In this document: piece after piece, positions 15,774-60,725 of the stretch
Position numbering within the stretch: the first letter of the stretch is position 1
How the letters are laid out: each line of letters starts with the position of its first letter
DNA from: Cupriavidus nantongensis
GTDB taxonomy: Bacteria > Pseudomonadota > Gammaproteobacteria > Burkholderiales > Burkholderiaceae
DNA: 64,000 bases
Reading direction: 5' to 3'
Assembly: GCF_001598055.1 (NCBI RefSeq)
Contig: NZ_CP014844.1
Location: forward strand, 2,782,967-2,846,966
Made by a program: the position numbers and the translations under genes
The notes under the pieces: model-generated
Databases searched by the model: none
The model's input: the letters and a program-made list of their open reading frames with translations, nothing else
What the model was told of the DNA's origin: nothing

Positions 15774-15791
15774 GTATAGCCGCCACGATAC
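15774..15791 (-). promoter_or_regulatory. operator-like inverted repeat (site 1)
   Basis: GTATAG-N6-CGATAC, 9 bases before the preferred start at 15765. One of nine sites with the same 6-6-6 layout in the window. Confidence 0.5.
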
Positions 15792-15802
15792 GTATTCTAC
15801 CG

Positions 15803-16216
15803 TCAACGAGACGAATGGCGTACTGCGACATGAGAAACGGCAAGCACCGTGCCGTCACGGTGCTCCAACTCACGCTGCCCCAGCTCTTCTCTCCTGGACA
15901 GTTGACGCAGCTTCTCCATCAGTCCTTTGGGATCCGCAAGCAGCGCACCCGCAACGACCAGTGGGTCGATGCCCAAGGCATCGCAGCAAAAGGGGAATGG
16001 AATGGTTGCGGCGTCGCCGCAGCTGGCCGAGATCCAGCGTTTTGCAGACTTGTGATTCAGCCTGGCTTCTCGAGCGCCGCGCGTTAGATCTTGGTGCCCC
16101 GGCAATGGCCGCGCTAGATCCGCGGCGGCCAATTCGAGCATTTCGATGGCCAGATGCTTGAAGATGGATCCACCGGCAACCCGCCTCTCGTCCGTCTCAA
16201 GGGCAATTCGCGGCAT
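15803..16216 (-). CDS. hypothetical protein with CII/phage-regulator look
   Basis: A 137-residue protein starting at the ATG at 16216 (GAGGG SD at proper spacing); a GTG at 16231 is the alternative. It is helical and basic (ARLNHKSAKRWISASCGDAA), with a middle segment (PFCCDALGIDPLVVAGALLA) that resembles the recognition half of a helix-turn-helix. Overlaps the previous gene by 20 bp. No confident family; possible small DNA-binding protein. Confidence 0.4.
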   Translation of the reverse strand: MPRIALETDERRVAGGSIFKHLAIEMLELAAADLARPLPGHQDLTRGAREARLNHKSAKRWISASCGDAATIPFPFCCDALGIDPLVVAGALLADPKGLMEKLRQLSRREELGQRELEHRDGTVLAVSHVAVRHSSR

Positions 16217-16391
16217 TGCCTTTACCCTCACGAAGCTTGCGAAGGACGCGGTCGTGCATCTCGGCCGCCCGGCCGCCGTCCACCAGCGGAGGTGGCGACG
16301 TCGACGACATGTACCGCGCTTTGAAGTAGTCCCATTCTTCCGGGGACAGTCTTTCCTGTGCCGCGCTTAGAAAGCGGATCAGCATCGTCAT
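16197..16391 (-). CDS. 64-residue hypothetical protein
   Basis: A short soluble protein (MTMLIRFLSAAQERLSPEEW) ending in a basic helix (HDRVLRKLREGKGNAANCP). The start is at 16391 or, two codons in, 16385. It begins 7 bp after the stop of the 2180-residue polyvalent gene and overlaps the next gene by 20 bp, so it belongs to that operon. Function unknown. Confidence 0.5.
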   Translation of the reverse strand: MTMLIRFLSAAQERLSPEEWDYFKARYMSSTSPPPLVDGGRAAEMHDRVLRKLREGKGNAANCP

Positions 16392-16398
16392 ATCGGTC

Positions 16399-19300
16399 CT
16401 AAGCAGCCTTCGGCCGCGGTGTTCGAGCGCTCGACTGGACCATCTCGAACTTCGTTCGCGCGATGTCGAGATAGTCCTTCATTGCGGTGTTGATCGTTGC
16501 TCGATCCCGACCGAGGGGATACGCGGAGTGTGGCCGCGTCTCGTGAGCTGATTCCTCGGTACCATGGACAAGATAGTCCTCCCTCCAGCCGTTTTCCTCG
16601 ATCTGGTCTTGGACGAAGCTCTCAAATGCCCGAGCCGTCAGCTCTCGCATCTGGGACCAATACGGCTGCGCCTTCTTCTTGTCGAAATTCTGTGCACTGA
16701 CGGCATACTGTGTATAGGTCCGCTTCTTCGCATGGTCGCTCTCGCGGCGCAGCGTATCGTCAGCGAGAAGCGCGTAGGCCTGAATATAGCCACGGATATG
16801 CCTGCCCAGCACCATCAAGCGAACGTCATGATCCGCTTTGGCCTTTCCATCCATCACCACCGGAAGGTCTCGCAATGCTTCCTGCAGCGGATGCTTCGCC
16901 CAACTGCACTGTCTCGCCTCCGGGTCCGTAGCTTCAAGGCGCAACTGGTCGAGATACTTTCGACAAGTGTGCTTGGCAATCTCCGCTGAAGCATTCGGTT
17001 GTGCGGCAAGAAGGATGTTCTCCAACGAGATTAGCAATGCGCGCTCTTCTCTCGCCACGTCTTCTTGCACTGCGCGCAGGACTTCTTCGTCCGACCAGGG
17101 GCGCGTACTTATCGAATCGACCAGCTTCAACAGTGGCCCCATCTCCTCCATCTCCGCGGGAAGCTTGTTCCAGTTCGCGTAGATAGCCGTCTTGAAATCT
17201 CCGCGCCGCCGGCCGCGTTGCACCGCAAGGAACAGCTCCGATGCGAAGTACGTGTCGCCAAGCTGGGCGTTTGCTCCGCGCTTCTCGGCGGCCTCCTTCT
17301 TAAGCTTATCGCCGACATAATCGTCGAACGCGTGCCACCATTCGTGAGCGAGAGATCCGGCCCCGCGTAGACGCGTGAGGTTGATCACCTTTCGTGCGCA
17401 TTCGTAGTGTGCGAGGGCTCGTCCGACGCCGCGCGATCCGAATGCAAGGGCCAAGGTGCCTTCGAGGCTTAGGGCCTTCTTGTCGACTTCGAGCACCCGT
17501 GCGAGCGTGCACAAGGCATCGTAGGCGCGATTCAAAACGTCCTGCCGCTCGGTATCCGGCAGCCAGTTTCCGAACTCGCACGCGCGGAAGCCGAAGTCAT
17601 TTAGCAGGTCCTCAGGCAAAACGTTCCGGCCATAGCGCTCATCCGGAAGACCCTCTCGGATGACGTTGGCGAGGTGCGGACGCGCCAGTGCTTGCTTGTC
17701 TGCATCCCCGCTTTCTCGGTTCTCCATTGTCTGCCTACGCTTCTGCGCGGTTTGCTGCCTCTGAGCCTCCAGAAAATCGTAGAACGCGTCCGAGTCCATG
17801 TCACGGGGACGTTGCCACTCATCTCCAATCTTGAACTGCTTGGAGTGGTACGGATAGGTGGCCAGCCTGTACCCTTCGTCAGCATCGAACAGAAACCGGT
17901 TGACGAACCTAAAGCCACTGCGCGAAGCCGCGTACAGCATGTCGGAATACTCGTTCGACAACGAGCGTGAGGTCCCATAGGGCCGCTCTTCTCGCACGAG
18001 AACACCGGCACTGACCAGGCCATCCTCGAAGGCAGAAAGATCGGCCTTCGTTTTGATCCTGCCCGCTAGATCCTGGAGCTTCCGCGCCATGTCGACATAG
18101 ACTTCCACATGGCTAATGTGCTTGGGAGCAGCAGGAAACTCCCTGCGCATGGACTGCACGAATAGCGCGACTCTCGCGTCGACGCCCCGCTCACGATAAT
18201 CTGCGAGAGACCGCGACGGCCAGACGTTGTCCTTCGTGACCAGTTCCATCTTCTCCCGGTCGTTCATGTCCGCCAAATCTTCCACGCGAAGGGCCAAGTT
18301 GTAGAAATCCTTGCGGGCTCCTCCGATCTTCTCACCGGCATCATCGATGCGATCCCGCGCGGCCTCTGGATTCTTCGCTGCACGGCGGCGGCGCACCGGT
18401 TCCTGTGCGTTCAGCACGCTGCCGGCATCCGCCTTTTCGCTCGCAATCTCGGCGTGGGCGTCTTTCCATAGGCCGGGAAGTGGGAACTGGTGACCCATCG
18501 GGCCATCCACCATCAGGTGGTTTCGCTTAACGCGGAGCCCCGCACCCGCCCATGTTTGGAACGTGTGGCCTTTCTGGATCCCAGGCATCACCAGATTAGG
18601 GCCGGTGATCCCATCTTGACGGATTAGCGAGGCGACGTAGGCCACTGCCGCAGCCCGTGCTTCTCCTTCGGTCAGCCGGTGACCACCGATATCCGCCTCC
18701 GCCTGCGGTTCGATGCCAGCGTAGGCCAGCAAGCGCTCACGCTCGCCGGCTTGCAGACGGGTATCGGCTCGGATGAAGTCGAACAGCCCCTCCGTATCCA
18801 GGCCTCCTTGTTCGCGGAAGGCATCGAGGTCGCTACGGTAGGTCTCATACTGGTCGGACCCGCGGAATCGCATTTCAACGATCCAGCCGTCGCCGGACTG
18901 CAAAGCACGATAGTGGTGGTGCAGGTCAGCACCGCTGAACGCGGCAGCCAAGATGGTGGCCATTGACTGTGTAGCGACGGCCGACCCCGGTATGACTACC
19001 CAATGGCCGCAACGATAGTGCTCATTGGCTTCGTGGGCTGCCAATCCCTCGGGTCGGGAGTCACCCGTTTCCACTCTCCCATTGAGAGCGCTCACCAAGC
19101 TGGCAAACTGTGCCGGATGCTCTTGCCAGATCCTGACCAACTCGGCGTAGTCATCCACGCTAACCTTGTCGATAGGGAACAGCGACACAGCGGCTTCCAG
19201 GACGAGTCTGGCGCGATGCCCTATGCCCGTGTGATCGGGGCCAGTTCCGCGCAGATCCGACGTTGCGTTCGCCTGCCATTCCGGATCCGCCGCCAGCTTC

Positions 19301-22941: not shown

Positions 22942-22943
22942 GA

Positions 22944-23171
22944 CTACCCCCTCATGCCGAGGGGTCGCACGCGCTGAACAGACTTGGTCGCTTCGACGCT
23001 CTTGAGAATGGGCTCCAGCTTCGCGGAGATAGATTCGAAGTAGTCCGCTGCCTTCTGCAGGTTGTCACGGCTTGGCGTAATGCCAAGCGCGCCGTAACGG
23101 CTCAGCCGGACAAGCGTCTGTCCCGCGTGCTGCAACTTGCGGGTGAGGTCAATGTTTTCGTCCAGGGACAT
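22944..23171 (-). CDS. 75-residue hypothetical helical protein
   Basis: A small helical protein (MSLDENIDLTRKLQHAGQTL, then DYFESISAKLEPILKSVEAT) with heptad-like spacing. It ends 2 bp before the start of the polyvalent gene, a spacing that suggests co-translation; it might be a chaperone or partner of that very large protein, but this rests on position alone. Confidence 0.5.
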   Translation of the reverse strand: MSLDENIDLTRKLQHAGQTLVRLSRYGALGITPSRDNLQKAADYFESISAKLEPILKSVEATKSVQRVRPLGMRG

Positions 23172-23183
23172 AATGATTGCTTC

Positions 23184-24264: not shown

Positions 24265-24762
24265 TTAGTCACCGAAGCGCTGAGGTTGGTCTGCGCTGGA
24301 CTCCCGCTTTGGTCGGGGCCGCCGCGCTTCCCGAAAGCCGAGTTGCCGGTGCAGGTCTGAATCGCACTCGTCGGTGACGTACACCGCCACCGGCTCCGCG
24401 TCGTCGATGCGCTGCTCATCATCGTCGAGCGGGTTAAACAGAATGGTGTCGAAATAGACGTCACCGCCGTCCGCACGTTGGTTCACAACGCTTCCAAGGG
24501 CTACCGTCCGGCGGCCCATCTCGCCCGAAGTTGGGTCGATGTAGCTGGCAGTCAGAGAGATTACGACTCCCTCTCCATCACGCCGAGGGTTGATGAAGCC
24601 GAACACATGCTGACGCCCCTGCCCGACCAGATCGATATAACCGGAGAAGGCAGCCCGGCTGTTCGGATTGGTATTCTTGTAGAACGCCGCCTTTTCGAAC
24701 CACTTTTCACCAATCTTGCGTACACAACGCAAGATCGGCTGCGGGCCTTGGTCGTACGACAT
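24265..24762 (-). CDS. hypothetical transfer-region protein
   Basis: A 165-residue protein starting at the ATG at 24762 (CGGAG SD); the frame extends further upstream but across the operator at 24822. The first ~95 residues (ILRCVRKIGEKWFEKAAFYK, RQHVFGFINPRRDGEGVVIS) look like a beta-rich domain, possibly OB-like; the middle is very acidic (FNPLDDDEQRIDDAEPV) and the end basic. It lies 12 bp before the topoisomerase-like gene, which would suit a DNA-binding accessory. No firm family. Confidence 0.5.
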   Translation of the reverse strand: MSYDQGPQPILRCVRKIGEKWFEKAAFYKNTNPNSRAAFSGYIDLVGQGRQHVFGFINPRRDGEGVVISLTASYIDPTSGEMGRRTVALGSVVNQRADGGDVYFDTILFNPLDDDEQRIDDAEPVAVYVTDECDSDLHRQLGFREARRPRPKRESSADQPQRFGD

Positions 24763-24821: not shown

Positions 24822-24839
24822 GTATCATCATAACGATAC
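24822..24839 (-). promoter_or_regulatory. operator-like inverted repeat (site 2)
   Basis: GTATCA-N6-CGATAC, 59 bases upstream of the start at 24762 and downstream of the membrane-protein gene ending at 24879. It would control the operon 24762 to 15803, including the polyvalent protein. Confidence 0.6.
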
Positions 24840-27946: not shown

Positions 27947-28618
27947 TCAGTTCGGCACGTTGACGATGCGCTTGTCCGTAACGACCGTGCGCGTTTGAGG
28001 ATCCACAGCGACGAGTAGTTCGCCGCTAGGAAGGTGCGCGCCGACCGTGTGCCGCGTGCCCGCGATCACGACAGACCCGCTGTCGAATGAGCTGATCCCG
28101 CTCTTTTCGGCTGTCATGAACTCGACCGGCAGGGCGCTCACGTCGACCTTGCTGACTTTCGCCTCTGCTACCGTCTTGCGGGCCGTCTGAGCGGATACAG
28201 CGGCCTCCTCCTTCGCCCTCGGGCTCGTCGCCTTCGGGAGGGACTCCAGCTGGGTTTCAAGCCTGTTTAGAGCGCGCTCCGCCTCGGAGAGGCGCGCACT
28301 CTGCGCTTCCGTCGTAGCCCGCAACGCAGCCAGCAGCACGGCCGTAGGTTCCTTCCCGGTGCTGTGTACCGGCGACGCAGGGGCCTCCTTGCTTTGCAGC
28401 CCGACTATTGAGGGAGGCGGCGCAGCCGCCTCCCTTGGGACGGCGGCGCTGGCTTCGGTAGACCCCCATCCATTCGATTCGGTGTACAGGTAACCCGCTA
28501 TGCCAATTGCGAACAGGAGCGCAACCAGGAGCGCCTTACCTGACGCGGTAATCTCATAGCCGCCTGACTTGCCCGCATGCCCCGTCGTCATTGCCTTCAG
28601 TGTGCCCTCGCCTTGCAT
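27947..28618 (-). CDS. bitopic inner-membrane protein, DotF/TraP-like architecture
   Basis: A 223-residue protein starting at the ATG at 28618; the longer frame would run through the operator at 28641. One membrane helix (ALLVALLFAIGIAGYLY), a Pro/Ala linker, a coiled coil (TTEAQSARLSEAERALNRLE) and a C-terminal ~65-residue beta domain (SGSVVIAGTRHTVGAHLPSG, ELLVAVDPQTRTVVTDKRI). This layout repeats that of the TraP/DotF gene at 53732, so it is either a second, diverged DotF-like protein or a PilP-like pilot for the pilus. It is the first gene of the bactofilin operon. Confidence 0.55.
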   Translation of the reverse strand: MQGEGTLKAMTTGHAGKSGGYEITASGKALLVALLFAIGIAGYLYTESNGWGSTEASAAVPREAAAPPPSIVGLQSKEAPASPVHSTGKEPTAVLLAALRATTEAQSARLSEAERALNRLETQLESLPKATSPRAKEEAAVSAQTARKTVAEAKVSKVDVSALPVEFMTAEKSGISSFDSGSVVIAGTRHTVGAHLPSGELLVAVDPQTRTVVTDKRIVNVPN

Positions 28619-28640: not shown

Positions 28641-28658
28641 GTATCGCATACACGATAC
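28641..28658 (-). promoter_or_regulatory. operator-like inverted repeat (site 3)
   Basis: GTATCG-N6-CGATAC, both arms perfect, 22 bases upstream of the start at 28618. A TATAGT -10-like box lies just beyond it on the minus strand. Confidence 0.7.
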
Positions 28659-28756: not shown

Positions 28757-29356
28757 CTACAGCACGATCTCGATGTCCGGGTGCAAACGCGCCCTCGCGG
28801 AGGCAATCCTTTTGTAGTCGCTTGGAAAGGAGGTTGCGGTAAGAGGCAACGTGTGAAACTGCGTCATGACAGGATGGGTGACGACTTTCACATGAGAAAA
28901 GGCCGGCAAGCGCAATAGGCGCGGCAATAGATCGGGACGTCGGGCGATCAGCTCCGCTTCTTTAGGATTGCGGGGATCCATCCCTCGCTTACCATCCTCA
29001 GTCAGCCACTCATGCCAGTGTTCACCTATGATCTGAATCAACTCCCGGCTGGTCCTATTGAGGTTGAGCAGGTCGACATTCTCTAATTGATCCGTGCCAA
29101 GTATCTTTGGATACAACGGCTTGGCGACCTCGACCGTAAGGTCGACCACGATCATTTCCCTCTTCTTCGCATCCGCATACTTGCGCGCATGCATCATGCC
29201 CACCAGACTCGATTGGCCCGACAGCCCGGTAATAAATCCTGGTATGCGGTGAAGTATCGGCATCGAGCAATCCCGGATTGGAATCTGGTCCGGGATCTCC
29301 GATTTCTTGAAGAATAGAACGACAGCAACGTCGACGCTCGCCCCTTTTTTTGTCAT
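28757..29356 (-). CDS. hypothetical protein
   Basis: A 199-residue soluble protein (VDVAVVLFFKKSEIPDQIPI, SRELIQIIGEHWHEWLTEDG). The middle has SLVGMMHARKYADAKKREMI. No signal peptide, membrane segment or catalytic motif recognised. It lies 21 bp downstream of the regulator-like gene at 29378 and ends about 100 bp before operator site 3, so it closes the operon that begins at 31018. Confidence 0.5.
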   Translation of the reverse strand: MTKKGASVDVAVVLFFKKSEIPDQIPIRDCSMPILHRIPGFITGLSGQSSLVGMMHARKYADAKKREMIVVDLTVEVAKPLYPKILGTDQLENVDLLNLNRTSRELIQIIGEHWHEWLTEDGKRGMDPRNPKEAELIARRPDLLPRLLRLPAFSHVKVVTHPVMTQFHTLPLTATSFPSDYKRIASARARLHPDIEIVL

Positions 29357-29377: not shown

Positions 29378-29893
29378 TTATTCCTTGCGCCAGGTAGCCC
29401 GTTCGAACAGGTCTTTAATTCCTAGGCGTTCAGCAATCTTGATGGCGTATGTCCGCAGCAAAGCCCGCTTCTTCGGTCCGGGCAGGTGAATTCGGCTATA
29501 CGCCTCCATCAGTCGCTCGACTGGCTTGCTGTAGTTCCCCTCTCCAGCGAGCCAGCGGTAGACAGCTGCAGGCTCGCGCCCCACGAGCACTGCAAACTCC
29601 TTCTTGTGCGAAGGGTTTTCCGGATCGAAACCCAGTTCGATCATAAATTGCTGAATATCGAGCTGCCGGACGCTCGGCATTGATTCTGGATAGGCCTCGT
29701 ATATCTCAAGCAGCTGACAGACCGCCTTGTCTTCGATTGGATCTTGCGGCCTAGATCGCATTTCAGTGAACTTAGCGCGTTGCAGCCCCAGTTGCTCGCA
29801 CGCCGCGCTCACAGTTAGGCCATTTTTTATGCGCCACTTCTCGACCTCAAGATTCTTGATTGGTTCGGCCAAGTTTCGGTCTGTCTTTTTCAT
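29378..29893 (-). CDS. probable helix-turn-helix regulator
   Basis: A 171-residue helical protein. Two segments look like helix-turn-helix units: GLTVSAACEQLGLQRAKFTE (about 25-44) and KEFAVLVGREPAAVYRWLAG (about 97-117), each followed by a further helix. Two HTH-like halves in one chain would suit binding to an inverted repeat, which makes it one candidate for the regulator of the nine GTATCG-type operators. It ends 21 bp before the next gene and starts 3 bp after the previous one. Confidence 0.5.
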   Translation of the reverse strand: MKKTDRNLAEPIKNLEVEKWRIKNGLTVSAACEQLGLQRAKFTEMRSRPQDPIEDKAVCQLLEIYEAYPESMPSVRQLDIQQFMIELGFDPENPSHKKEFAVLVGREPAAVYRWLAGEGNYSKPVERLMEAYSRIHLPGPKKRALLRTYAIKIAERLGIKDLFERATWRKE

Positions 29894-29896
29894 AAG

Positions 29897-31018
29897 TTAG
29901 GTTGTTGGTCGACTCCCTTTCCCAAAACCGGAAAGGTCATCCGCCTGCATTTCAATTTCAAACAGGTCGTCGTCACCCACCAAGGCAACGTGTTGGGCAG
30001 CAGATTGCTCGATTCCTGCTTTCTCGGCCGGAGGCAAATGGCCGGCCGCCTCCAGTTTGCTCAATACATCCTGCACCGCCGCTGGCGGCTCAGAGACTGC
30101 CCGCAAGTTGCGGAGCGGCTTCAACTCCACCACATTGTTCGGCAGTTCCTCGTTAGCTTGATGCCGGAGGGCAAGGGCATTCTTGATTGCGTCCCGCCCT
30201 ACCCCATACTTATCGAGTAGCCCCGCCAACGCCGCCTCACTGTAGCCGGCCTCCAATGCCGTCGCGCAGATTTGCTCTCGCGCCCGACGTTGTGCCGCCA
30301 GTGCGGAGTGAAGCCGGTCCAACTCAGCAATGTAGGGCGTCATTTCGCCTTGTGGATCGAATTCACGCGCCAGCGCGCCGCCGCCGCGGCGAACGTCATT
30401 GGCAAACACCGATAGGGCGTCTTCCGCGCTGATGTCCAGCCGTGCCGCGGCCGGCGAGATATGGACCAGAACCCGGCATTCGAGATCCGAGACCACACCC
30501 TTCATCTGTCTATCCAAGTCGCAGTTCGACTGGAGTAGCACCCGCAGAGCAATCTTTGGGTCAGCAAGTTCCGGCGTACTCAGTGCAGCCTGCAGAGAAG
30601 CAGATAAATTCTGCCCCGTTGCGGACTCGACCAAGCCGGTTACCATGGCATTGACACGTTCGAGGATTTCCTGAGGCCCCTTCACATGGAAGCCTTCAGG
30701 CGATTCTGTTGCCGTCATGGCCGGGCCGCCATCGTAGCCCGCGCCGGTCGGAGGAGCGGCCGGCCCTTCGCCAGTTGCGCTGCCCGGTACCTCTGGTCTG
30801 CCAGTAAAGAAACTGACGATACGGCGCAACAACACTCGAATGGCCTCGATCAGATGGCGCAAACTGATACCCTCCGCCGCCTGCCCTTGTATAGGGGACC
30901 GTTTCACCCGGCTTGCCAGCGCGGCTTTGTCGAGCCAAAGCTCACCGCTACCAGCGGTGGCCAGATCTTTCTCTGCGGGGCTTCCAAAGTAACTTTCCGA
31001 CATTACGCCCGGGGGCAT
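29897..31018 (-). CDS. hypothetical transfer-region protein
   Basis: A 373-residue protein; the ATG at 31018 is preferred (GGAG 8 bases upstream), with a TTG at 31051 possible but inside the operator. N-terminal ~100 residues basic with RHLIEAIRVLLRRIVSFFTG (amphipathic or membrane-peripheral), a Gly/Pro linker, then a long helical part (ILERVNAMVTGLVESATGQN, FANDVRRGGGALAREFDPQG, AGYSEAALAGLLDKYGVGRD). It may be a VirB1- or mobilisation-type accessory, but nothing is diagnostic. First gene of the operon controlled by operator site 4. Confidence 0.5.
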   Translation of the reverse strand: MPPGVMSESYFGSPAEKDLATAGSGELWLDKAALASRVKRSPIQGQAAEGISLRHLIEAIRVLLRRIVSFFTGRPEVPGSATGEGPAAPPTGAGYDGGPAMTATESPEGFHVKGPQEILERVNAMVTGLVESATGQNLSASLQAALSTPELADPKIALRVLLQSNCDLDRQMKGVVSDLECRVLVHISPAAARLDISAEDALSVFANDVRRGGGALAREFDPQGEMTPYIAELDRLHSALAAQRRAREQICATALEAGYSEAALAGLLDKYGVGRDAIKNALALRHQANEELPNNVVELKPLRNLRAVSEPPAAVQDVLSKLEAAGHLPPAEKAGIEQSAAQHVALVGDDDLFEIEMQADDLSGFGKGSRPTT

Positions 31019-31039: not shown

Positions 31040-31057
31040 GTATCGCTTCAATTATAC
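31040..31057 (-). promoter_or_regulatory. operator-like inverted repeat overlapping a TATAAT box (site 4)
   Basis: On the minus strand, GTATAA-TTGAAG-CGATAC; the TATAAT within it is a perfect -10 box. It lies 21 bases before the ATG at 31018. Confidence 0.7.
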
Positions 31058-36683: not shown

Positions 36684-37144
36684 CCGAACCTCCTTGCGGC
36701 GTCGGCGACCCGCAAGACATAGCCATAACCAATGACGGGGTCCGGGTTGTGATACCTCGCCACGCCAGTCCAGAAATCACGTGCACGGTTTATCTCGTAG
36801 CGCAAGACGTATCCGGCACCGCGGATTGCAAGACACCGATCCTGGACGATCTGCTGCGCCGTGATGCCGAAGTTGCGCTGGAACACCCGGATCCAGAAGT
36901 CATTAAGTTGCATGATTCCGTAATCGCGTGATCCGTTTCGATTGGGTCGGGAGACCATGGTTGTGCTTTTCGACCCGGAAGACTCCACCTGGTGGATGCC
37001 ACGCAGAATGCAGGAAGGCACCTGATATTCGATCTCTGTCGCCGCAAAACACTGCGCGAGTTCTGCATCGTCCGAAGCTGACGCGACGGATCCCATTCCA
37101 GCTATCGCTGCGGCACCCAGAAGCTTTCCCAGCCGGACCCTCAT
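36668..37144 (-). CDS. SLT-type lytic transglycosylase
   Basis: A 158-residue exported enzyme with signal peptide (KLLGAAAIAGMGSVASA). The SLT core is clear: VPSCILRGIHQVESSGSKST with catalytic Glu54, GSRDYGIMQLNDFWIRVF, and VARYHNPDPVIGYGYVLRVA. It cuts peptidoglycan glycan strands so that the transfer apparatus can span the wall. VirB1-like enzymes of this size are standard in conjugation operons. It overlaps the genes on both sides, so it belongs to the trb operon. Confidence 0.9.
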   Translation of the reverse strand: MRVRLGKLLGAAAIAGMGSVASASDDAELAQCFAATEIEYQVPSCILRGIHQVESSGSKSTTMVSRPNRNGSRDYGIMQLNDFWIRVFQRNFGITAQQIVQDRCLAIRGAGYVLRYEINRARDFWTGVARYHNPDPVIGYGYVLRVADAARRFGCQIK

Positions 37145-37548
37145 TGCGTCTCCTCGATCTCTTCAATGCAAACCAGTAGATGGCGCAGCTTTTCAGTCGA
37201 GAACAACAAGGCGTACTCGCCTCCCTTCCGGATACGGTCCAGGCGCCGATTTGCCTCCGGAATGGTCTCGATGTGATGCGGCCACTTGTGCTCGATGGCG
37301 ATCACAACCGGTATCGCCGCGGTGAAAGGCACTGCAGAGAAAAAGCGGTTTAGCTCGACATGGCACGCTTCCAGGTCATCCCGTGACATCGCTGACACCA
37401 TCTGCGCCATGCGGTGGGCAGCGGCGGCAATCTGCTGCCTGGGCATGCCTGTGGGCGACGCGTCGATCTGCCTTGCCACCATGCGGCCCACTTCCGACTG
37501 GAGCAGTTCGATCAACGCCGCCCGTGGCTCTCCGAGCATTGAGGCCAT
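37141..37548 (-). CDS. hypothetical protein heading the trb operon
   Basis: A 135-residue soluble helical protein (GEPRAALIELLQSEVGRMVA, HRMAQMVSAMSRDDLEACHV). The ATG at 37548 has AGGAGA nine bases upstream, which decides the start. Its stop overlaps the transglycosylase start by 4 bp. It lies 23 bases from the double operator at 37572-37600. Family not recognised; could be a cytoplasmic accessory of the coupling complex. Confidence 0.55.
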   Translation of the reverse strand: MASMLGEPRAALIELLQSEVGRMVARQIDASPTGMPRQQIAAAAHRMAQMVSAMSRDDLEACHVELNRFFSAVPFTAAIPVVIAIEHKWPHHIETIPEANRRLDRIRKGGEYALLFSTEKLRHLLVCIEEIEETQ

Positions 37549-37571: not shown

Positions 37572-37600
37572 GTATCGCTGTAACGATACGCATTGTATCG
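37572..37600. promoter_or_regulatory. double operator-like site between divergent trb and rep genes (site 5)
   Basis: GTATCG-CTGTAA-CGATAC (37572-37589) plus a further half-site GTATCG at 37595-37600. The 81-bp divergent region between the genes starting at 37548 (minus) and 37630 (plus) can therefore be shut or opened from one place. Confidence 0.7.
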
Positions 37601-37983: not shown

Positions 37984-38001
37984 GTGTCATTACAACGATA
38001 C
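37984..38001 (+). promoter_or_regulatory. operator-like inverted repeat at the repA start (site 6)
   Basis: GTGTCA-TTACAA-CGATAC, ending 10 bases before the ATG at 38012. The left arm is the most degenerate of the nine sites. Confidence 0.5.
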
Positions 38002-38011: not shown

Positions 38012-39019
38012 ATGGCTGAATTGGAACTCGTTGCCCCGGCTGCCACGAGGAGACCCAAGGTTGTTGCTGGCGAAAAGGTCATTCACGCATCGACCGTGAT
38101 CGCCGCTCGCAAGCCCGGTCTTGATGAGGTCGGATTTGGCGCGAAATGTCTCGTCTCGGCTTCCTTGCCATACCGAAATCCGAAGCCAGAGCAGTTGGTC
38201 AACGGCGCGTGGCTCAGGCACAACGGCAACTACGCTCTGTGGGTACAAGGCGGTATCAACGGGATTCCATACGGCATTTATCCGCGACTGTTTGTCATGT
38301 GGCTGACATCGGAGGCGCTCCGCACGGGCAGCCGGAAGATTCATACCGGTGGAACGTTCGCTGAGTTTTGTCGCAAGCTGAATATTGATCGGAGTCGAGG
38401 CAAGCGCGGTGCGGGCAAAGCCCTGATCGAACAAGCAGATCGCTTCCTGCAGAGCCGTGCTGCCTTCGTAACACTTCCCGCGCATCTCGCGACCGGCAAG
38501 CGAGCGGACTTTCTTAGCGCGAAGCTAAAGCACACCGACCTACTCAGCTTCGCCGACGGATACTCGCTCTTCTTTGATCCGGATGAGCAAGCGTCTCAGC
38601 AAGGTTCCCTCTTTAGCTCAGAAATTACCCTTACGGAGAACTTCTTCGACGAAATTACGGCTCACTGCATTCCAGTGGATCTGCGAGCCGTTACTGCCCT
38701 GCAGCGCTCGCCCATGGATCTGGATATCTATCAGTGGCTTGCCTATCGGATGTTCAAGCTGACCAAGCCGGCCTATCCAACCTGGGAGCAGCTGTACCAG
38801 CAGTTCGGCTCAAACTACGGGCGGTTGCGTGACTTCCGAAGCGAGTTCATCGAATCACTTAAACGAGTCCACCTCGTCTACCCCGGGCTCCGCGTATCTG
38901 AAGCCGAAGGTGGGTCCGGTCTAGTTCTTTATCCATCGCCGACACCAGTCGCGCCAACCTCACTGCCCGCGGCGCGCAACGCCAGTGAAGCTTCGCCCCA
39001 ACTGCTATTGGTTAGCTAA
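38012..39019 (+). CDS. repA: plasmid replication initiator, RepA (RepA_C-type)
   Basis: A 335-residue initiator. The ATG at 38012 is preferred: GGAATTGGTC supplies a ribosome site and the operator stays outside the gene; 37976 is an alternative. Family pattern of plasmid-encoded RepA proteins: YGIYPRLFVMWLTSEALRTG, KIHTGGTFAEFCRKLNID, HCIPVDLRAVTALQRSPMDL, DIYQWLAYRMFKLTKPAYP, and YGRLRDFRSEFIESLKRVHL. These proteins bind iterons and open the origin with DnaA. A matching nine-iteron array lies 3.2 kb downstream (42208-42513) and a single copy lies 100 bp after the gene. Confidence 0.9.
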   Translation: MAELELVAPAATRRPKVVAGEKVIHASTVIAARKPGLDEVGFGAKCLVSASLPYRNPKPEQLVNGAWLRHNGNYALWVQGGINGIPYGIYPRLFVMWLTSEALRTGSRKIHTGGTFAEFCRKLNIDRSRGKRGAGKALIEQADRFLQSRAAFVTLPAHLATGKRADFLSAKLKHTDLLSFADGYSLFFDPDEQASQQGSLFSSEITLTENFFDEITAHCIPVDLRAVTALQRSPMDLDIYQWLAYRMFKLTKPAYPTWEQLYQQFGSNYGRLRDFRSEFIESLKRVHLVYPGLRVSEAEGGSGLVLYPSPTPVAPTSLPAARNASEASPQLLLVS

Positions 39020-53177: not shown

Positions 53178-53201
53178 TTTGATCTCCGAGATGGGGAACT
53201 G

Positions 53202-53732
53202 TTAAAACGTCATGCCAATGGTTTCTTTGAACGCATCCACGGTGCTGCCGATGTTGACCATCGCGGCTCCGCCCATGGCGTGGATGAATCCTTTCCATGC
53301 GTAGTCTTCGTATCCGCCGCTACCGTGTCCCTCCGATGCTTTCTTGAACATCGTTAATCCCTTGAATCCGTACCACCAGCCAAACGTCGAAACAATGGTG
53401 AAGATGGCGTTGATAGCCGGCGCAAACACGCCAGCGGCACTGGCCCCCGAGTAGGACACCATGCCGAACCCAGCACCACGTTGGCCGGTCATGGTTTCCC
53501 AGAGATCGCCCATCGTGCTGGTGAAGTTGAGCAACACTGCGCCGATCAGGAGCGCGGTGAGGATCGCTGCGCCGGATGTTTCGCCACCCCCGGGGTGACT
53601 AGAGGCTTTGATCCCTCGATTTACTGCCTTTGCGATGTACCAGAGGCCGACTCCGTAGGCTGCAGCCGCCGCGAGCGACTGAAACTCGACAATAGAGGCG
53701 GCAATCTGCGTGACAATCGTTGTGAGATCCAT
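53202..53732 (-). CDS. traQ: TraQ-like (IcmC/DotE-like) membrane protein
   Basis: A 176-residue inner-membrane protein with several helices (FQSLAAAAAYGVGLWYIAKA, AAILTALLIGAVLLNFTSTM, AINAIFTIVSTFGWWYGFKG, FIHAMGGAAMVNIGSTVDAF). The arrangement resembles IcmC/DotE and TraQ of IncI1. It touches traP (53732 is shared) and precedes the TraR-like gene by 24 bp. It probably contributes to the inner-membrane channel. Confidence 0.7.
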   Translation of the reverse strand: MDLTTIVTQIAASIVEFQSLAAAAAYGVGLWYIAKAVNRGIKASSHPGGGETSGAAILTALLIGAVLLNFTSTMGDLWETMTGQRGAGFGMVSYSGASAAGVFAPAINAIFTIVSTFGWWYGFKGLTMFKKASEGHGSGGYEDYAWKGFIHAMGGAAMVNIGSTVDAFKETIGMTF

Positions 53733-54661
53733 CAGCGAATGACGCCCGCCGTCGTGCGAACGATGTACTTGTCAGCGTCAATCTCCACGATTTCACTGCC
53801 GCCAAGCTTGTCTCCTTTGGTTTTCACATACTGCTTGCCTGTCTCATCTTCGAGCCAGGCCTGTCCAGGGATGACTTGCTTGATCTTGTAGCCGAGTTGA
53901 ATTTCGTCCCTCGGGTTCGAGCGCGCACGCGTCGCCTTGGCGCGGACTACGCCAGCCGCCTTCTCGCGCGCGCGGTCTTCGTCAGATAGAGGCTTGGTGG
54001 CTCGCGTGGCTTTCGGTCGCGGCTGGACTTCGACGCGACGATTTTCTAGCGCGGCAAGTCGCTTTCCCATGTCCTCGAGTTGAGCCGTCTGAGCTTTCAG
54101 CTGCGCTAGGATGGCCGCGTCCGTGTCGCTCGCTTCCCGCCTGTCGGAGTCCTTGGGAACTTCCTTGCGGCTACCGATTTCAGTGGGCGCGTTCACAGCG
54201 CTAGCAGTCAAGGAGGCAGCAGACACCTCGCTCGCAGAACCAATAGAAGCCGCCGACCCCGTCACAGCCGCAGCAAAGCTGTCGCTCTGCATGGCCGGAC
54301 CTGTGCCATTGGGAACGAAACCCTGTGGTGCGGTCTCGTGCTGAAGTTGACGGCTGGGAGAGAACGAGTCCGGTGCGGGGCCCTCCCCATTCGGCTGCAG
54401 TGCGCCCATCATTCCGCCTTCGCTCATCGGTGCACTCGACGAGAATGCGGCCGGGCTAGAAGGCTTACTCATCTTCTTGTAGCCCCAGAAGCCCAGGACG
54501 GCGAAAGCGACCGCGCCATAGATCAGAAAGTTGGCGGGCAGCTTGCGCTTCGGTTTTTCCGAAGTCGGAACGTCGGTGATCTCGTCTTGCGAAGGATCGT
54601 ATGGGGCGTCGTCGTGGTCGGTCGTTTCGAGATTGGCGTCAAAGTGATTGGTCTGGCTCAT
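53732..54661 (-). CDS. traP: TraP/DotF (IcmG)-like bitopic protein
   Basis: A 309-residue protein: acidic cytoplasmic N-terminus, single membrane helix (NFLIYGAVAFAVLGFWGYK), a Ser/Ala/Pro linker, coiled coil (AILAQLKAQTAQLEDMGKRL), basic region and a C-terminal ~60-residue beta domain (IQLGYKIKQVIPGQAWLEDE, VEIDADKYIVRTTAGVI). DotF/IcmG is part of the core complex that links coupling proteins to the envelope channel. It has its own operator and -10 box just upstream, so a second promoter may feed traP through traY. A shorter relative is encoded at 27947. Confidence 0.85.
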   Translation of the reverse strand: MSQTNHFDANLETTDHDDAPYDPSQDEITDVPTSEKPKRKLPANFLIYGAVAFAVLGFWGYKKMSKPSSPAAFSSSAPMSEGGMMGALQPNGEGPAPDSFSPSRQLQHETAPQGFVPNGTGPAMQSDSFAAAVTGSAASIGSASEVSAASLTASAVNAPTEIGSRKEVPKDSDRREASDTDAAILAQLKAQTAQLEDMGKRLAALENRRVEVQPRPKATRATKPLSDEDRAREKAAGVVRAKATRARSNPRDEIQLGYKIKQVIPGQAWLEDETGKQYVKTKGDKLGGSEIVEIDADKYIVRTTAGVIR

Positions 54662-54677
54662 GCGGGTCCCCGGATGC

Positions 54678-54695
54678 GTATCGATGTAATTATAC
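54678..54695 (-). promoter_or_regulatory. operator-like inverted repeat overlapping a TATAAT box (site 7)
   Basis: On the minus strand, GTATAA-TTACAT-CGATAC with a perfect TATAAT. It lies 16 bases upstream of traP in the only sizeable gap (57 bp) of the traM-traT stretch. Confidence 0.7.
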
Positions 54696-54718
54696 GTACT
54701 AACGTGGGCGGAAAAACC

Positions 54719-56799: not shown

Positions 56800-56801
56800 G
56801 G

Positions 56802-57068
56802 CTAGAATGGCACTCCGGTGACGGCGGCTACCATGCAGCGGGTATCGATGATGCCTTGCAACCAGTCATGGCACCGGCGCGACGGTGCGCTTTGCTGCAA
56901 CTCGGTGAGGGTGTCGCGCGAAGCCGCGAAGACGTCGATCAGATCGAGCTGGACTGCCCAGTCGGTTTGCATCGCTGAGCTGAGAGGGTGACCGTGCTCC
57001 CCGCAGGCCGCTTCCTGAACGATGTCCAGCGATGTCGGCAAGGAGAATTCTTCTGCTTCTTGTGGCAT
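56802..57068 (-). CDS. hypothetical small protein between traM and traN
   Basis: An 88-residue soluble protein with several cysteines and histidines (VQEAACGEHGHPLSSAMQTD, RCHDWLQGIIDTRCMVAAV). It lies 8 bp after traM and 2 bp before traN, so it is certainly in the operon. It has no counterpart in the IncI1 order and no known family. Lack of a signal suggests a cytoplasmic role. Confidence 0.55.
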   Translation of the reverse strand: MPQEAEEFSLPTSLDIVQEAACGEHGHPLSSAMQTDWAVQLDLIDVFAASRDTLTELQQSAPSRRCHDWLQGIIDTRCMVAAVTGVPF

Positions 57069-57076
57069 GACTTAAC

Positions 57077-57763
57077 CTAGTTGATTTTCGTGTTGCAAGT
57101 AAGCCGCAGGGACTGGGTAGCAATGCCTGCCGGGTTGTCTTCGATCGGGAGTCGCTTGACCGTCTGCTTGACCAGGCATTCGTAGGTCTTGCGTTCGCTC
57201 TGGCCGGTAATGGTGATGGCGATGGGCATCTCGGTTTCCCACGTGTACACGCCGCCCTGGTCGTACTCGTTCGCAATAACCCCTGCACCGGTGGCTACAG
57301 CCGAAGTGACCAAACGACGCGAGCGGATCTTCTCGATGAGACCCGACGTGTCGTACTGCTGCATCAGAGAGGCGTACCCATCCCGGGTGAACTGTGGTCG
57401 CAGCGCAACCAACTTCGCCTTGAGGTTGGTGTCATCAAAGTCCAGGGAGAACGCGCCGGTCGCGGTTTTCTGCACCTTCTGCAGGACTGCTTCGCTACTG
57501 ACGAAGGGCTTCGACAGAGGAACTATCGGGATCAGACGTCCCCCTTCTGTCATGCCAAGCAGTTGCGGGCCAGGCCGCGTCACGAATTGAATGATGTTCA
57601 GGCCAATGGATCCAACGAGCGCAAGCCCGATGACTAGGTTGTTCGTCAGCTGACGGCTAAAGCCTGATTTGTAGAAGCCGGACGTGGCGAGCGTCCTCAT
57701 GATGGGGTCTGTATTTGCGGCCGGGCGCGCGCTGGCCGCCGCTTTCTGGACGGGCGAGGTCAT
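57077..57763 (-). CDS. traM: TraM/DotI (IcmL) inner-membrane protein
   Basis: A 228-residue bitopic protein. Membrane helix near 40-60 (NLVIGLALVGSIGLNIIQFV), then the periplasmic NTF2-like (VirB8-type) domain: GRLIPIVPLSKPFVSSEAVL, FTRDGYASLMQQYDTSGLIE, WETEMPIAITITGQSERKTY and the end QSLRLTCNTKI. DotI forms rings in the inner-membrane part of the machine. First structural gene of the tra operon, overlapping the regulator gene by 4 bp. Confidence 0.92.
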   Translation of the reverse strand: MTSPVQKAAASARPAANTDPIMRTLATSGFYKSGFSRQLTNNLVIGLALVGSIGLNIIQFVTRPGPQLLGMTEGGRLIPIVPLSKPFVSSEAVLQKVQKTATGAFSLDFDDTNLKAKLVALRPQFTRDGYASLMQQYDTSGLIEKIRSRRLVTSAVATGAGVIANEYDQGGVYTWETEMPIAITITGQSERKTYECLVKQTVKRLPIEDNPAGIATQSLRLTCNTKIN

Positions 57764-58113
57764 TGCACAGCGTCCTTTTCTGGTTGGCGGGCAGCAAATC
57801 GCTCGGGATAAAGGAGGTGGATCTCTGACACGATCATGTACACCCCACCCATGCGGTCGAGCAGCTCCTTGCAGGCCGCCAAGAGCTTTGTCTTCTGTTC
57901 CGAGGGCGCCCCGTCCTTATCACGGCCGCAAGTCCCAGAGTTCAGAATGCGCGCCAAACTCGCGGCGACTTCCGGGGTCGGGACGCCCCCCTGCTCGAGA
58001 CGCGTGAAGTACGAACGGGAAATCCCAGCAGCTTCACAAAGCTTGTCTGGGCTGAGGTTGCGCGCCACGCGTATGGCCTTGAGTGCCGTCAGCGGTCTAT
58101 CGGATGCGGACAT
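57760..58113 (-). CDS. XRE-family regulator at the head of the tra operon
   Basis: A 117-residue protein starting at the ATG at 58113 (the frame runs on through the operator). Residues ~8-60 are a Cro/C1-type HTH: ALKAIRVARNLSPDKLCEAA, GISRSYFTRLEQGGVPTPEV, AASLARILNS. The C-terminal half (LLAACKELLDRMGGVYMIVS) is likely for dimerisation or ligand sensing. Position as first gene of the operon, with operator site 8 in its promoter, makes autoregulation likely; it is the leading candidate for the protein that binds the GTATCG-N6-CGATAC family. Confidence 0.82.
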   Translation of the reverse strand: MSASDRPLTALKAIRVARNLSPDKLCEAAGISRSYFTRLEQGGVPTPEVAASLARILNSGTCGRDKDGAPSEQKTKLLAACKELLDRMGGVYMIVSEIHLLYPERFAARQPEKDAVQ

Positions 58114-58131
58114 TGGTACGGGCGTAATTAT

Positions 58132-58149
58132 GTATCGTGTGAATGGTAC
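58132..58149 (-). promoter_or_regulatory. operator-like inverted repeat of the tra operon (site 8)
   Basis: On the minus strand, GTACCA-TTCACA-CGATAC, 18 bases before the ATG at 58113. TACCAT takes the place of the TATAAT seen at sites 4, 7 and 9. Confidence 0.6.
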
Positions 58150-58698
58150 GAAATTAAACCGCGCGCGGATTTTGACTGTCAAGAACATTCACTGACGGGA
58201 AACAAATCTGCGACGTGAGGGGCCATGGCTTGCGCGCGGTGTTTCTTTGCCCCCTCGTGGGTCGGCGGGCGGCGCGAAAGCCTATGGAAATGACGTATGA
58301 AGCACCGTGGTCTCGAGCGCTATGTGATGTAAGCGCTTCTTTAATCTGATTTATCCACTGTGTTAAACGGCGCGGACGGCCACTTTCTGGATACCCCACT
58401 CGGGGGGGGGCCGTGTCGCCCCGCTATCGGCGTTTGCTCTTGCTGCGTCAGCTGGCTGGATGGTCGGCGCTGCGAAGGAGCGGGCCGTGGGTAGGCAGGA
58501 GTGAATCTAGATGGCTGCGCCGTAGCGGGATGCCTCACGGAGTAGAGGCCGGAGGAGCGCTACGAAAAATAATTTGCATTGCACTCTGCCCTACAAATCC
58601 GGGAGGCCCGGCGGGGGCACCGGGCGTTATTGCTTCCGAATCAGCGACTTACGGACTCATGCGCTGTAGGCGGGACGCCCAAATAGGCTGGTACCTGC
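58150..58698. other. non-coding stretch between tra operon and recombinase
   Basis: About 550 bp without a convincing gene on either strand. It should contain the rest of the tra promoter (58150-58200). I see a G8 run at 58404-58411 but no terminator, array or long inverted repeat. Confidence 0.5.
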
Positions 58699-59625
58699 TC
58701 AGCTGCCGTCTGGCTTCGCAACGGGCACCGGTTTTGTCTTGTCCCGATACTTCGGCCAGGCGGAGCGCTTTGGAGCGTAATGCGTGCGAGCCGTTCTCGT
58801 GGACGCGTGCCCGAGTAGCTTTGCGACTTCTTCGTGCGAGTGAACAGCCTTGACGTTGGCGCTGAACTGGTGACGTGCGGAATACAACGCGTAGCGCTTT
58901 GTAGGGTCGTTCCCCCACAAAGCTTTGCAGGCCCGATAGACCGCCACCGCGCAATTTTCGTGGATCTCCGTAAAGGATTTTCCGGCACCGAGCATCTCGC
59001 GGATCGAGGCGATGTGCGCCCGTACGATGCCCATGTCTTCGTGCGCGACAGGGACCGAGCGCGTCGGACCGGTTCCCCTGCCATTGGTCGCCTTGGCGTT
59101 ACGTGCATGCAGCTGGCCGGTGGCTTCGTCCAGTTCGGCATGCTCCCACTCGCGTGGTCGCAGGCCGGTGGCGACGGCGGCCATCAGCCATAGGCTGGCG
59201 CGCGTGGCGTAGTAACCGTTTCGGGTAGGGTTCGAGAGGTTGGCGACAAGCAAATCGTAGTCTGCCTTCCTGATCCCCTTGCGCTTTCGCGACGAAGTCT
59301 GGCCCACGGTATTCGCGGGGATGCAGTCGCCGTAAGGTAGGCGGCGGATTTCCTCAGCCGTCTGCATGAAGAGCGCGTTGCCGGTTCGTTCGGCTTCGAT
59401 TTCGTAGCGGCAGGCCAAACTGGCCTGATATTGCCGGAATGTTGACCACTTCCATTGCGGGGCGTTCTGCTTCATGAAGGCGACGACGGCCTCGGGCGGC
59501 GGATAGGCGTCATCGGGGAGCGCCATCTCCTTCGCCAAGCGGGTCATCAGGCCATTCGCACGCCGCAGGTAACTGTCGACTGTTGCCGACGTCCGAGACT
59601 GCTTACGGGCTCTGTTGGGATTCAT
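58699..59625 (-). CDS. tyrosine recombinase (integrase/resolvase type)
   Basis: A 308-residue site-specific recombinase starting at the ATG at 59625. Core-binding domain ~15-95 (TVDSYLRRANGLMTRLAKEM, WSTFRQYQASLACRYEIEAE); catalytic domain with Arg156 in ATGLRPREW, the box ALYSARHQFSANV (Arg251; the usual first His is Tyr248), LLGHAST with His273 and the nucleophile Tyr283 in RTHYAP. On a plasmid this usually resolves multimers or integrates cassettes. The adjacent 1.1-kb non-coding block with perfect inverted repeats (60054-60107) is a natural place for its site. Confidence 0.88.
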   Translation of the reverse strand: MNPNRARKQSRTSATVDSYLRRANGLMTRLAKEMALPDDAYPPPEAVVAFMKQNAPQWKWSTFRQYQASLACRYEIEAERTGNALFMQTAEEIRRLPYGDCIPANTVGQTSSRKRKGIRKADYDLLVANLSNPTRNGYYATRASLWLMAAVATGLRPREWEHAELDEATGQLHARNAKATNGRGTGPTRSVPVAHEDMGIVRAHIASIREMLGAGKSFTEIHENCAVAVYRACKALWGNDPTKRYALYSARHQFSANVKAVHSHEEVAKLLGHASTRTARTHYAPKRSAWPKYRDKTKPVPVAKPDGS

Positions 59626-60053
59626 GTGCGTCGAACTCCATTCCATTGTCGTCGGCCGCAGGCCGTGCCGCCCGGCGGCATCACTGTGCATTGCAGCTTA
59701 CCTACCGCGATGGTCTCCGCGGCCAAGTAGGGTCCATGCGCTTCGAATCCAATGTCAGCCTCCTGCGCCCATTCCGATAGCTGCCCCGTTGATGTCGGCC
59801 TCGCCGGTGCCTCCTGGTGGCTCCCGCCTTCGGGTGGTATCCGTGCTCGCGGGCCCGGTCCGGTCGATTCCTGCCTGGGTGGCCACACCGGTCTCTGACC
59901 TGCAGGGTCCGATGTGACGGGTGCCGCGGTTGCTATCTGCGAGTGAGTGGTGACGAGCTTACGGGCGCTGGCTGCTGGTGTGCTGATCCTGCAGTGGCCG
60001 GCCGCTGCAGGTCGCGATTCTGGTTGATTCCGTTACTCGGGTTGGTATCGGCG
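59626..60053. other. non-coding stretch next to the recombinase
   Basis: Frames are open here in several directions because of high GC, but none has a ribosome site or protein-like composition I trust. Contains short repeated words (GGTATCCG, CCGTTACTCGG) but no array. Likely promoter and site DNA for the recombinase. Confidence 0.4.
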
Positions 60054-60107
60054 GCGGCTATGTTGTCACATAGCCGCGTTACACGAGCGCTCACTGCGTC
60101 GTGTAAC
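60054..60107. repeat. two adjacent perfect inverted repeats (candidate recombination site or oriT element)
   Basis: GCGGCTATGT-tgtc-ACATAGCCGC (60054-60077), directly followed by GTTACACGA-N12-TCGTGTAAC (60078-60107). Two perfect, abutting palindromes in non-coding DNA 430 bp from a tyrosine recombinase and 640 bp from stbA. Confidence 0.6.
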
Positions 60108-60378
60108 AGGCCCATGGTGACGGAATCCTAGCAGATACCGTGTTCGTCGGGAATCTGATGTTGTGTTTTCTGCGCATCGCGCTGTGCCACCCGGGTGGGA
60201 GCGTCGGTTTGGCTGGCGACCATATCGGTGACGGTCTAGCCGTGGCAGCGCGACATTGCGTTCGAGAAGCGTGGGCCGGCTGGCGAACGCGGGGCGGCGC
60301 GCACGCCAGCGCCCTCTTTGCGTTGCGCTCCCTTCAGCTGAGGTCTCCATCGCCATGGGTCTCCTGCCGTCCCCTCCA

Positions 60379-60420
60379 GCGCCCGTTACCGAGCATATCG
60401 ATGTGCTTGGTAACGGGCGC
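60379..60420. repeat. 12-bp perfect inverted repeat
   Basis: GCGCCCGTTACC-N18-GGTAACGGGCGC. Part of it, CCGTTACCGRGCATA, recurs at 60533-60547. It could be an oriT hairpin or a protein-binding site; not followed by a T-run, so not a terminator. Confidence 0.55.
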
Positions 60421-60585
60421 GGACAGCAACCACATAGCGGCTCTCGGCCCATATTGCACAAGGCTGTCCCGGCTACCTCGTAGTGCTCTGCATCGGAGCG
60501 GTTGCCTTTGAACGGTCTACAACAAGTGGTCCGTTACCGGGCATAGCGCCGAATGCCCCGCCTTTCGGGCGAGCCGACGAAGTGT

Positions 60586-60658
60586 TCCTGCAGGTGCACT
60601 GCAAGGGCACTGCATCTTCACTGCAACTGTCCTGCACTATCAGTGCGCCGGCACTGCA
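60586..60658 (+). repeat. seven direct repeats at an exact 11-bp period upstream of the stb operon
   Basis: CACTGCA or a variant starts at 60586, 60597, 60608, 60619, 60630, 60641 and 60652. Four are perfect (60597, 60608, 60619, 60652), two read TCCTGCA and one CAGTGCG. One helical turn per unit places all on one face of the DNA, as in the StbA-binding stbDR repeats of plasmid R388. Confidence 0.75.
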
Positions 60659-60707
60659 TGACGCTCGCCCTCTCACCCCAAGCTCACTGCGCAGACGTCC
60701 TGATTCC

Positions 60708-60725
60708 GTATAATTGCAGCGATAC
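60708..60725 (+). promoter_or_regulatory. operator-like inverted repeat overlapping TATAAT, stb promoter (site 9)
   Basis: GTATAA-TTGCAG-CGATAC with a perfect TATAAT at 60709-60714, 21 bases before the stbA ATG and about 50 bases after the 11-bp repeats. Confidence 0.72.

What the first reader, a model, noticed from the sequence alone, without database searches (positions are those of the whole stretch)
15774..60725. A nine-site plasmid-wide regulon built on GTATCG-N6-CGATAC
The same 6-6-6 inverted repeat, or a close variant, occurs at 15774, 24822, 28641, 31040, 37572, 37984, 54678, 58132 and 60708, almost always 9-24 bases (once 59) before a start codon of a transfer, replication or stability gene. 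Read in the gene's direction, three sites (31040, 54678, 60708) share GTATAA as left arm, making a perfect TATAAT -10 box, so a bound repressor would cover promoter and start site. One control element would then tie together tra, trb, the polyvalent-protein operon, bactofilin operon, repA and stb, as KorA/KorB do on IncP plasmids but with a different operator. Candidate regulators: the XRE protein at 57760, the double-HTH protein at 29378, or StbA.
Basis: partly seen in the sequence, partly recalled or inferred. Interest (0 to 1): 0.85.

Follow-up and report, generated by a model that had tools for sequence, protein, structure and literature searches.

The report
Mobile element's shared transfer-gene off-switch sites
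A 100-kilobase bacterial mobile element carries one recurring 18-letter DNA mark on the promoters of its transfer, replication and stability genes, and a similar mark sits on many of the same promoters in related plasmids of other bacteria, pointing to a shared repressor of a family of gene-transfer machines.

Summary
All nine sites exist, and a matrix trained only on distant relatives picks exactly these nine plus a tenth (46755, dotA) in the window, against 0.05 per shuffle. The window is part of a ~102-kb Dot/Icm-type (MPF_I) conjugative element in a 4.62-Mb contig, related along its length to a 104-kb Cupriavidus gilardii plasmid. Sites recur before the same genes in three Cupriavidus plasmids and in diverged Burkholderiaceae elements; outer GTAT/ATAC bases are 98% conserved, spacers 67%, flanks 77%. 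They overlap predicted -10 boxes or start sites, the geometry of a repressor.

The choice of regulator changes. Plasmids of Pseudomonas, Stutzerimonas, Stenotrophomonas, Bordetella and Burkholderia relatives without the XRE gene carry the core GTAT-N10-ATAC before many of the same operons, and a near-match before the gene of the double-HTH protein. Six Dot/Icm plasmids without that protein, all enterobacterial, show no excess. I favour the double-HTH protein (29378-29893) as master repressor, XRE as clade-specific second regulator or passenger; StbA is unlikely. Binding and repression are inferred. My literature searches found no description.

The parts
15774..15791 (-). operator GTATCGTGGCGGCTATAC before gene 15355-15765 (tra-region operon)
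   Evidence: site at this gene in three sister plasmids
24822..24839 (-). operator about 60 bp before gene 24265-24762, next to the topoisomerase and polyvalent-protein genes
28641..28658 (-). perfect operator before the gene ending at 27947 and the bactofilin gene behind it
   Evidence: also at this gene in G122, G078 and G323, and farther upstream (d 122, 278) in G130 and G179
31040..31057 (-). operator with internal TATAAT, before 29897-31018, the double-HTH gene and 28757-29356
   Evidence: 18 of 18 bases identical in three sister plasmids
37572..37589 (-). perfect operator 24 bp before 37141-37548, first gene of the trb operon
   Evidence: also in G130, G078 (score 12.5), G179, G323
37984..38001 (+). 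operator (GTGTCA left arm) before repA (38012-39019); TTGACA-N17-TATGGT just upstream
   Evidence: same place in two sister plasmids, G179 and G323; weak in C. gilardii (8.1)
54678..54695 (-). operator with internal TATAAT, 17 bp before 53732-54661 (traP position)
   Evidence: also at traP in 4 of 6 XRE-less plasmids read whole
58132..58149 (-). operator 19 bp before the XRE-dotI-dotH-dotG operon; TTGACA-N18-TTTAAT just upstream
60708..60725 (+). operator with internal TATAAT before stbA (start 60747)
29378..29893 (-). double-HTH protein (dHTH, P0002, 171 aa), favoured master repressor
28757..29356 (-). gene after dHTH (199 aa, no Pfam match); its homologue is the next gene after dHTH in five XRE-less plasmids; possible partner
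57760..58113 (-). XRE-type protein (P0001, 117 aa), first gene of the dotI operon; found only in Burkholderiales elements here; rival or second-layer regulator
60747..61187 (+). StbA-like protein (26.8 bits, cut-off 100); gene behind a site, unlikely to be the regulator
61188..61877 (+). StbB family protein
   Evidence: 287 bits, cut-off 200

Best explanation
The sites are operators of one element-encoded repressor. It binds an 18-bp near-palindrome, GTAT-NR-TTRYAA-YN-ATAC, that lies on the -10 box or start site of main operons and blocks RNA polymerase, holding transfer, pilus, replication, partition and maintenance genes at a low, self-limited level. The most likely repressor is the double-HTH protein at 29378-29893, whose own operon carries a site. 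The XRE protein in the dotI operon is probably a later, clade-specific member of the regulon that may bind its own promoter. Shown here: the sites, their conservation, their overlap with predicted promoters and their co-occurrence with dHTH. Inferred: binding, repression and the identity of the regulator.
For: Independent matrix: ten window sites, 0.05 expected. Footprint, window element against three sisters at positions fixed by alignment and not by score, 40 of 42 pairs alignable: outer GTAT/ATAC 314 of 320 identical, arm positions 5-6 140 of 160, spacer 160 of 240, flanks 1228 of 1600. Same genes and similar spacings in four Cupriavidus elements and, for many genes, in diverged ones. Best -10 box within -15..+12 of the operator start in 70 of 80 distinct gene-oriented sites, 30% in shuffles; at operator bases 2-7 in 33 of 80. 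Core GTAT-N10-ATAC in nine XRE-less, dHTH-bearing records: 39 against 4 for the reversed pattern; in six dHTH-less Dot/Icm records: 6 against 7. In six of the nine, read whole, core or one-mismatch sites lie at dotD in 6, dHTH in 6, dotI in 5 and traP in 4. One-mismatch sites before dHTH in all nine. The Bordetella plasmid has GTATCGTTCATACGATAC before dotD and no XRE match. Two HTH domains in a confident dHTH model.
Against: Co-occurrence does not prove binding: the gene after dHTH co-occurs almost as well. The six dHTH-less records were hand-picked and are all Enterobacterales, so kinship rather than dHTH could explain the contrast. Two enterobacterial records with a distant dHTH (27-33% identity) show no excess of the core (1/0 and 1/3) and no site before dHTH. 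The sites before dHTH in the nine plasmids each have one mismatch in the outer eight bases and lie 89-159 bases upstream of the start used. A chain with two HTHs need not bind a simple palindrome; no oligomer was modelled. The 18 bases before XRE are almost unchanged in eight distant elements while other sites vary, which suggests that something, perhaps XRE, reads that site further.
Confidence: 0.6

Rival explanations
1. The XRE protein at 57760-58113, a P22 c2/SinR-like repressor, is the master repressor in this clade and binds all the sites, including its own promoter.
Against: XRE-less plasmids carry the operator at several of the same operons, and in 5 of 6 a site lies at dotI itself (in Stenotrophomonas overlapping the inferred start), so the site before XRE may be the old dotI operator. 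The Bordetella plasmid has a perfect GTATCG/CGATAC site without an XRE match.
Confidence: 0.2
2. Two regulators share one operator set, as CI and Cro do: dHTH in the whole branch, XRE added in the Burkholderiales clade as an opposing or fine-tuning factor. (This overlaps with the main reading, so the odds do not sum to one.)
For: The site before XRE is conserved far beyond the others in distant elements. The two XRE+ records counted whole have 10 cores each, the XRE-less ones 3-5.
Against: No second motif stood out in the one XRE+ plasmid scanned de novo (C. gilardii). Nothing shows that XRE binds any site. The higher number of sites may reflect larger elements.
Confidence: 0.3
3. The regulator is the gene product after dHTH (28757-29356) or another conserved protein without a recognised DNA-binding domain.
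For: Detected in the five XRE-less plasmids with sites that were compared, and not in the R64 or p40-95A stretches.
Against: No Pfam match, so no sign of a DNA-binding domain; its fold was not predicted.
Confidence: 0.1
4. The repeats are not operators but recombination, replication or partition sites, or chance.
For: One conserved site (74996; C. gilardii 4332) lies inside a pilus ATPase gene and not at an operon start.
Against: Most stand singly at gene starts on the predicted -10/+1 region, unlike iterons or centromere clusters; chance is excluded.
Confidence: 0.04

Closest known systems
KorA/KorB global regulons of IncP plasmids (recalled)
   Same: A plasmid-encoded repressor system binds a short inverted repeat at many promoters and ties replication, transfer and maintenance together.
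   Different: Different operator (the KorA/KorB operators are recalled, from no call); the favoured regulator is a two-HTH protein with no PDB sequence match at E <= 1; transfer genes are Dot/Icm (MPF_I).
IncI1 / I-complex transfer control (R64, pESI, pMS7163B)
   Same: Same family of transfer machine.
   Different: There TraB (NusG-like in pESI) and TraC act positively, and a transposon screen found no repressor under its conditions (passages of PMC5013300 and PMC10286972). R64 has one GTAT-N10-ATAC core, as many as the reversed control, and is not among the dHTH matches.
HigA2 / MqsA / Aca2 repressors
   Different: dHTH has a second, N-terminal HTH; Z this low may only mean a common arrangement.
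P22 c2 / SinR / CylR2 repressors
   Different: XRE is absent from many plasmids that carry the operator.

Membership tests
MPF_I / Dot-Icm (T4BSS) conjugative element | DotA, B, C, D, G, H, I, IcmT, TraQ, TraU and TraW homologues in conserved order | tested here: met
IncI1-type regulation by TraB/TraC | NusG-like TraB activator in the element | not tested
   no search for TraB/TraC was made in the element; TraB described in PMC5013300 (passages)
IncP KorA/KorB regulon | KorA/KorB operators at the promoters | not tested
   operators recalled only; no scan made
XRE (HTH_3/HTH_31) protein, for 57760-58113 | Pfam HTH_3/HTH_31 above the curated cut-off | tested here: met
   35.7 and 38.9 bits, cut-offs 23 and 27
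XRE protein as master repressor of the whole branch | present wherever the operator set is present | tested here: not met
   no orthologue in pEMT1, pZPPH33, Bordetella, P. syringae; only generic XRE proteins in Stutzerimonas and Stenotrophomonas; pBVIE04, pG20 and pMRSN365855_2 not among tblastn matches
dHTH as master repressor | present wherever the operator set is present, with a site before its gene or operon | tested here: met
   sites before dHTH in the XRE-less plasmids have one mismatch; no site was mapped before the dHTH operon in G122, G078 and G106; the two distant enterobacterial homologues lack the operator
dHTH as master repressor | binds the operator and represses | not testable with these tools
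   -
HigA2/MqsA-like HTH, for the C-domain of dHTH | fold match clearly above background | tested here: inconclusive
StbA (NF041290), for 60747-61187 | score above 100 bits | tested here: not met
   26.8 bits
StbB (NF041292), for 61188-61877 | score above 200 bits | tested here: met
   287 bits

The most novel reading that the evidence does not exclude
A previously undescribed family of two-HTH repressors and its GTAT-N10-ATAC operator form the ancestral global off-switch of the non-enterobacterial branch of Dot/Icm-type conjugative elements, kept at the same operons in Burkholderia relatives, Cupriavidus, Trinickia, Bordetella, Pseudomonas and Stenotrophomonas, while enterobacterial relatives use other control; in Burkholderiales an XRE protein was captured into the regulon as a second layer.
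Probability: 0.45. Interest if true: 0.75.

Novelty: new variant of a known kind. Interest (0 to 1): 0.62.

Why it matters
As far as I know (recalled), control of Dot/Icm-type conjugation has been studied mainly in enterobacterial IncI plasmids; in the passages I read, positive regulators stand out there (PMC10286972, PMC5013300). This work predicts one operator and one candidate repressor for an environmental branch that includes catabolic plasmids such as pEMT1 and plasmids of Pseudomonas. The prediction is precise enough to test with a gel shift and a reporter, and it links several genes annotated only as hypothetical into one regulon.

Tried and rejected
N6 as a free spacer: pooled sites favour TTRYAA, although between close relatives the spacer drifts at least as fast as the flanks (160 of 240 against 1228 of 1600). 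A first footprint count took only sites scoring 12 or more and gave outer bases 285 of 288; it leans towards conservation, so I use the score-blind count. In that count 4 of 40 aligned sister positions fall below score 12 or align with a gap (two of these, in C. oxalaticus and P-10, still have a site at that gene), and 2 of 42 could not be aligned. XRE as a homologue of R64 TraL, which holds the same gene position: rejected, no similarity. A diverged XRE in XRE-less plasmids: not found; hits in Stutzerimonas and Stenotrophomonas are generic XRE proteins. StbA as regulator: unlikely. Sites 17516 and 37918: chance. Genomes of the family with dHTH but no XRE (7 of 16 dHTH-bearing genomes): of the four whose surroundings I read, G044 and G197 are partial or rearranged and keep two sites each, G029 (a 26.6-kb contig) and G001 one each, that of G001 102 bp before dHTH, so they decide little. 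Integration ends: no tRNA in 144 kb and no exact direct repeat of 16 or more bases between the two end regions compared. Phage records with dHTH: none at E <= 0.01. PDB sequences: no match to dHTH at E <= 1, none to the XRE profile at E <= 0.001. Foldseek gave no match to dHTH below E 0.6. A family that the fold lists do not show is not thereby excluded. Papers: (listings only); passages seen in PMC10286972, PMC5013300 and PMC7690428. None describes this operator in what I saw; most subscription papers are not in that library.
Full report
WHAT THE WINDOW IS. The window is bases 2782967-2846966 of a 4.62-Mb contig in a 7.14-Mb, three-contig genome. Window 52000-62000 matches a 104-kb circular plasmid of Cupriavidus gilardii WM2 (NZ_OP484953.1) at 88% over 84% of its length. 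Compared over its length, the related stretch runs from about window -6835 to 95327 at 73-92% identity with gaps. Annotation of the sister names DotA, DotG, DotH, DotI, DotD, IcmT, TraQ, TraW, a type IV pilus set, RepA, StbB and a ParB-domain protein. G+C is about 58-62% inside and 64-67% outside. So it is a Dot/Icm-type (MPF_I) conjugative element, here in a chromosome-size contig; I did not find its integration ends.

THE SITES ARE REAL. All nine are there. Stricter forms raise the contrast: 8 in the window against 0.07 per shuffle, 11 in the element, 0 in 41.5 kb of flank, and 11 of the 15 genome-wide sites in 1.4% of the genome. The training sites were chosen by the strict form, which fixes the outer eight bases.

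THEY ARE CONSERVED AS OPERATORS. In four Cupriavidus elements sites recur before the same genes with similar spacing: StbA, DotD, the traP position, XRE, the trb operon head, repA, the double-HTH operon, the bactofilin operon and others; the dotA site is clear in three of the four and weak in C. gilardii. With positions fixed by alignment and not by score, 40 of 42 window-element/sister pairs could be compared: 314 of 320 outer bases agree, 140 of 160 at arm positions 5-6, 160 of 240 in the spacer and 1228 of 1600 within 20 bases on either side. In elements whose proteins are mostly about 30-75% identical, sites still precede traP, DotD, trb, hyp60010, DotA, repA and the dHTH operon, though not every element has every site, and some lie farther upstream.

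PROMOTER GEOMETRY. Among 80 distinct gene-oriented sites within 130 bp of a gene, the best sigma-70 -10 box lies between -15 and +12 of the operator start in 70, against 30% in shuffled sequences; in 33 it is operator bases 2-7. The operator itself contains TAT, which helps this count. RepA and XRE instead have TTGACA with a 17-18 bp spacer and the operator just after the -10 box in the Cupriavidus elements. Both arrangements would block RNA polymerase.

WHICH PROTEIN. XRE looked best at first: its homologues in the family search (9 of 398 genomes) have a site at their promoter, G122's being a three-mismatch variant. But plasmids without XRE carry the core GTAT-N10-ATAC. Whole-record counts against the reversed pattern: pBVIE04 4/0, Stutzerimonas 4/1, pG20 4/1, pMRSN365855_2 5/0, pEMT1 5/0, pZPPH33 5/0, Bordetella 4/1, Stenotrophomonas 3/1, P. 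syringae 5/0, in all 39/4; Dot/Icm records without dHTH: R64 1/1, Pantoea 0/1, Salmonella 2/2, Erwinia 0/0, E. coli 1/3, Edwardsiella 2/0, in all 6/7; two enterobacterial records with a distant dHTH 1/0 and 1/3. That is 11 of the 55 non-Cupriavidus dHTH records and 6 hand-picked of the 3,668 DotH-matching records, these 6 all Enterobacterales. In six of the XRE-less records read whole, sites lie at dotD (6 of 6), dHTH (6 of 6), dotI (5 of 6), traP (4 of 6) and the trb/topB divergence (6 of 6); some have one mismatch in the outer eight bases and a few overlap the inferred start. The sites before dHTH, each with one such mismatch, are near-identical from Burkholderia to Pseudomonas and recognisable in Bordetella; the two distant enterobacterial homologues have none. 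The Bordetella plasmid, which has no XRE match, has GTATCGTTCATACGATAC before dotD. The simplest reading is that dHTH is the regulator of an old network and that XRE came later into the dotI operon behind an existing operator. Against leaving XRE out altogether, the 18 bases before XRE are almost invariant across eight distant elements while other sites vary.

VERDICT. The regulon is real and wider than proposed; a repressor is the likely mode of action; dHTH is the likeliest regulator at about 0.6, with XRE sharing the operators an open possibility. On checking I lowered the main reading from 0.62 to 0.60 and the novel reading from 0.50 to 0.45, because the dHTH-less comparison set proved to be all enterobacterial. 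The searches named under Tried and rejected found no print of it.

Noticed in passing
window coordinate 74996 (in L014); C. gilardii plasmid 4332: A site conserved in four Cupriavidus elements lies inside the pilus ATPase gene and not at an operon start; it may mark an internal promoter.
   Followed up: no
L070-L076, upstream of the XRE gene: The XRE/dotI promoter of distant elements has a further conserved upstream stretch with two CTTGAC boxes about 20 bp apart, suggesting another regulator.
   Followed up: no
window 57760-58113: The 12 aligned XRE homologues share an invariant EIHLLYP stretch near the C-terminus, of unknown role.
   Followed up: no
pEMT1 and pZPPH33 (L066-L069): The palindrome ACGTA-N2-TACGT occurs 14 times in each, far above expectation; perhaps an iteron or partition array.
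   Followed up: no
G323:C2 ends (L038-L044): The start and the end of this contig both carry the same XRE/dot/pil region, so it probably is circular with overlapping ends, or carries the element twice.
   Followed up: no
about window -6835 to 95327: The element sits in a chromosome-size contig although its closest relatives found are circular plasmids; no tRNA or long direct repeat marks its ends.
   Followed up: partly
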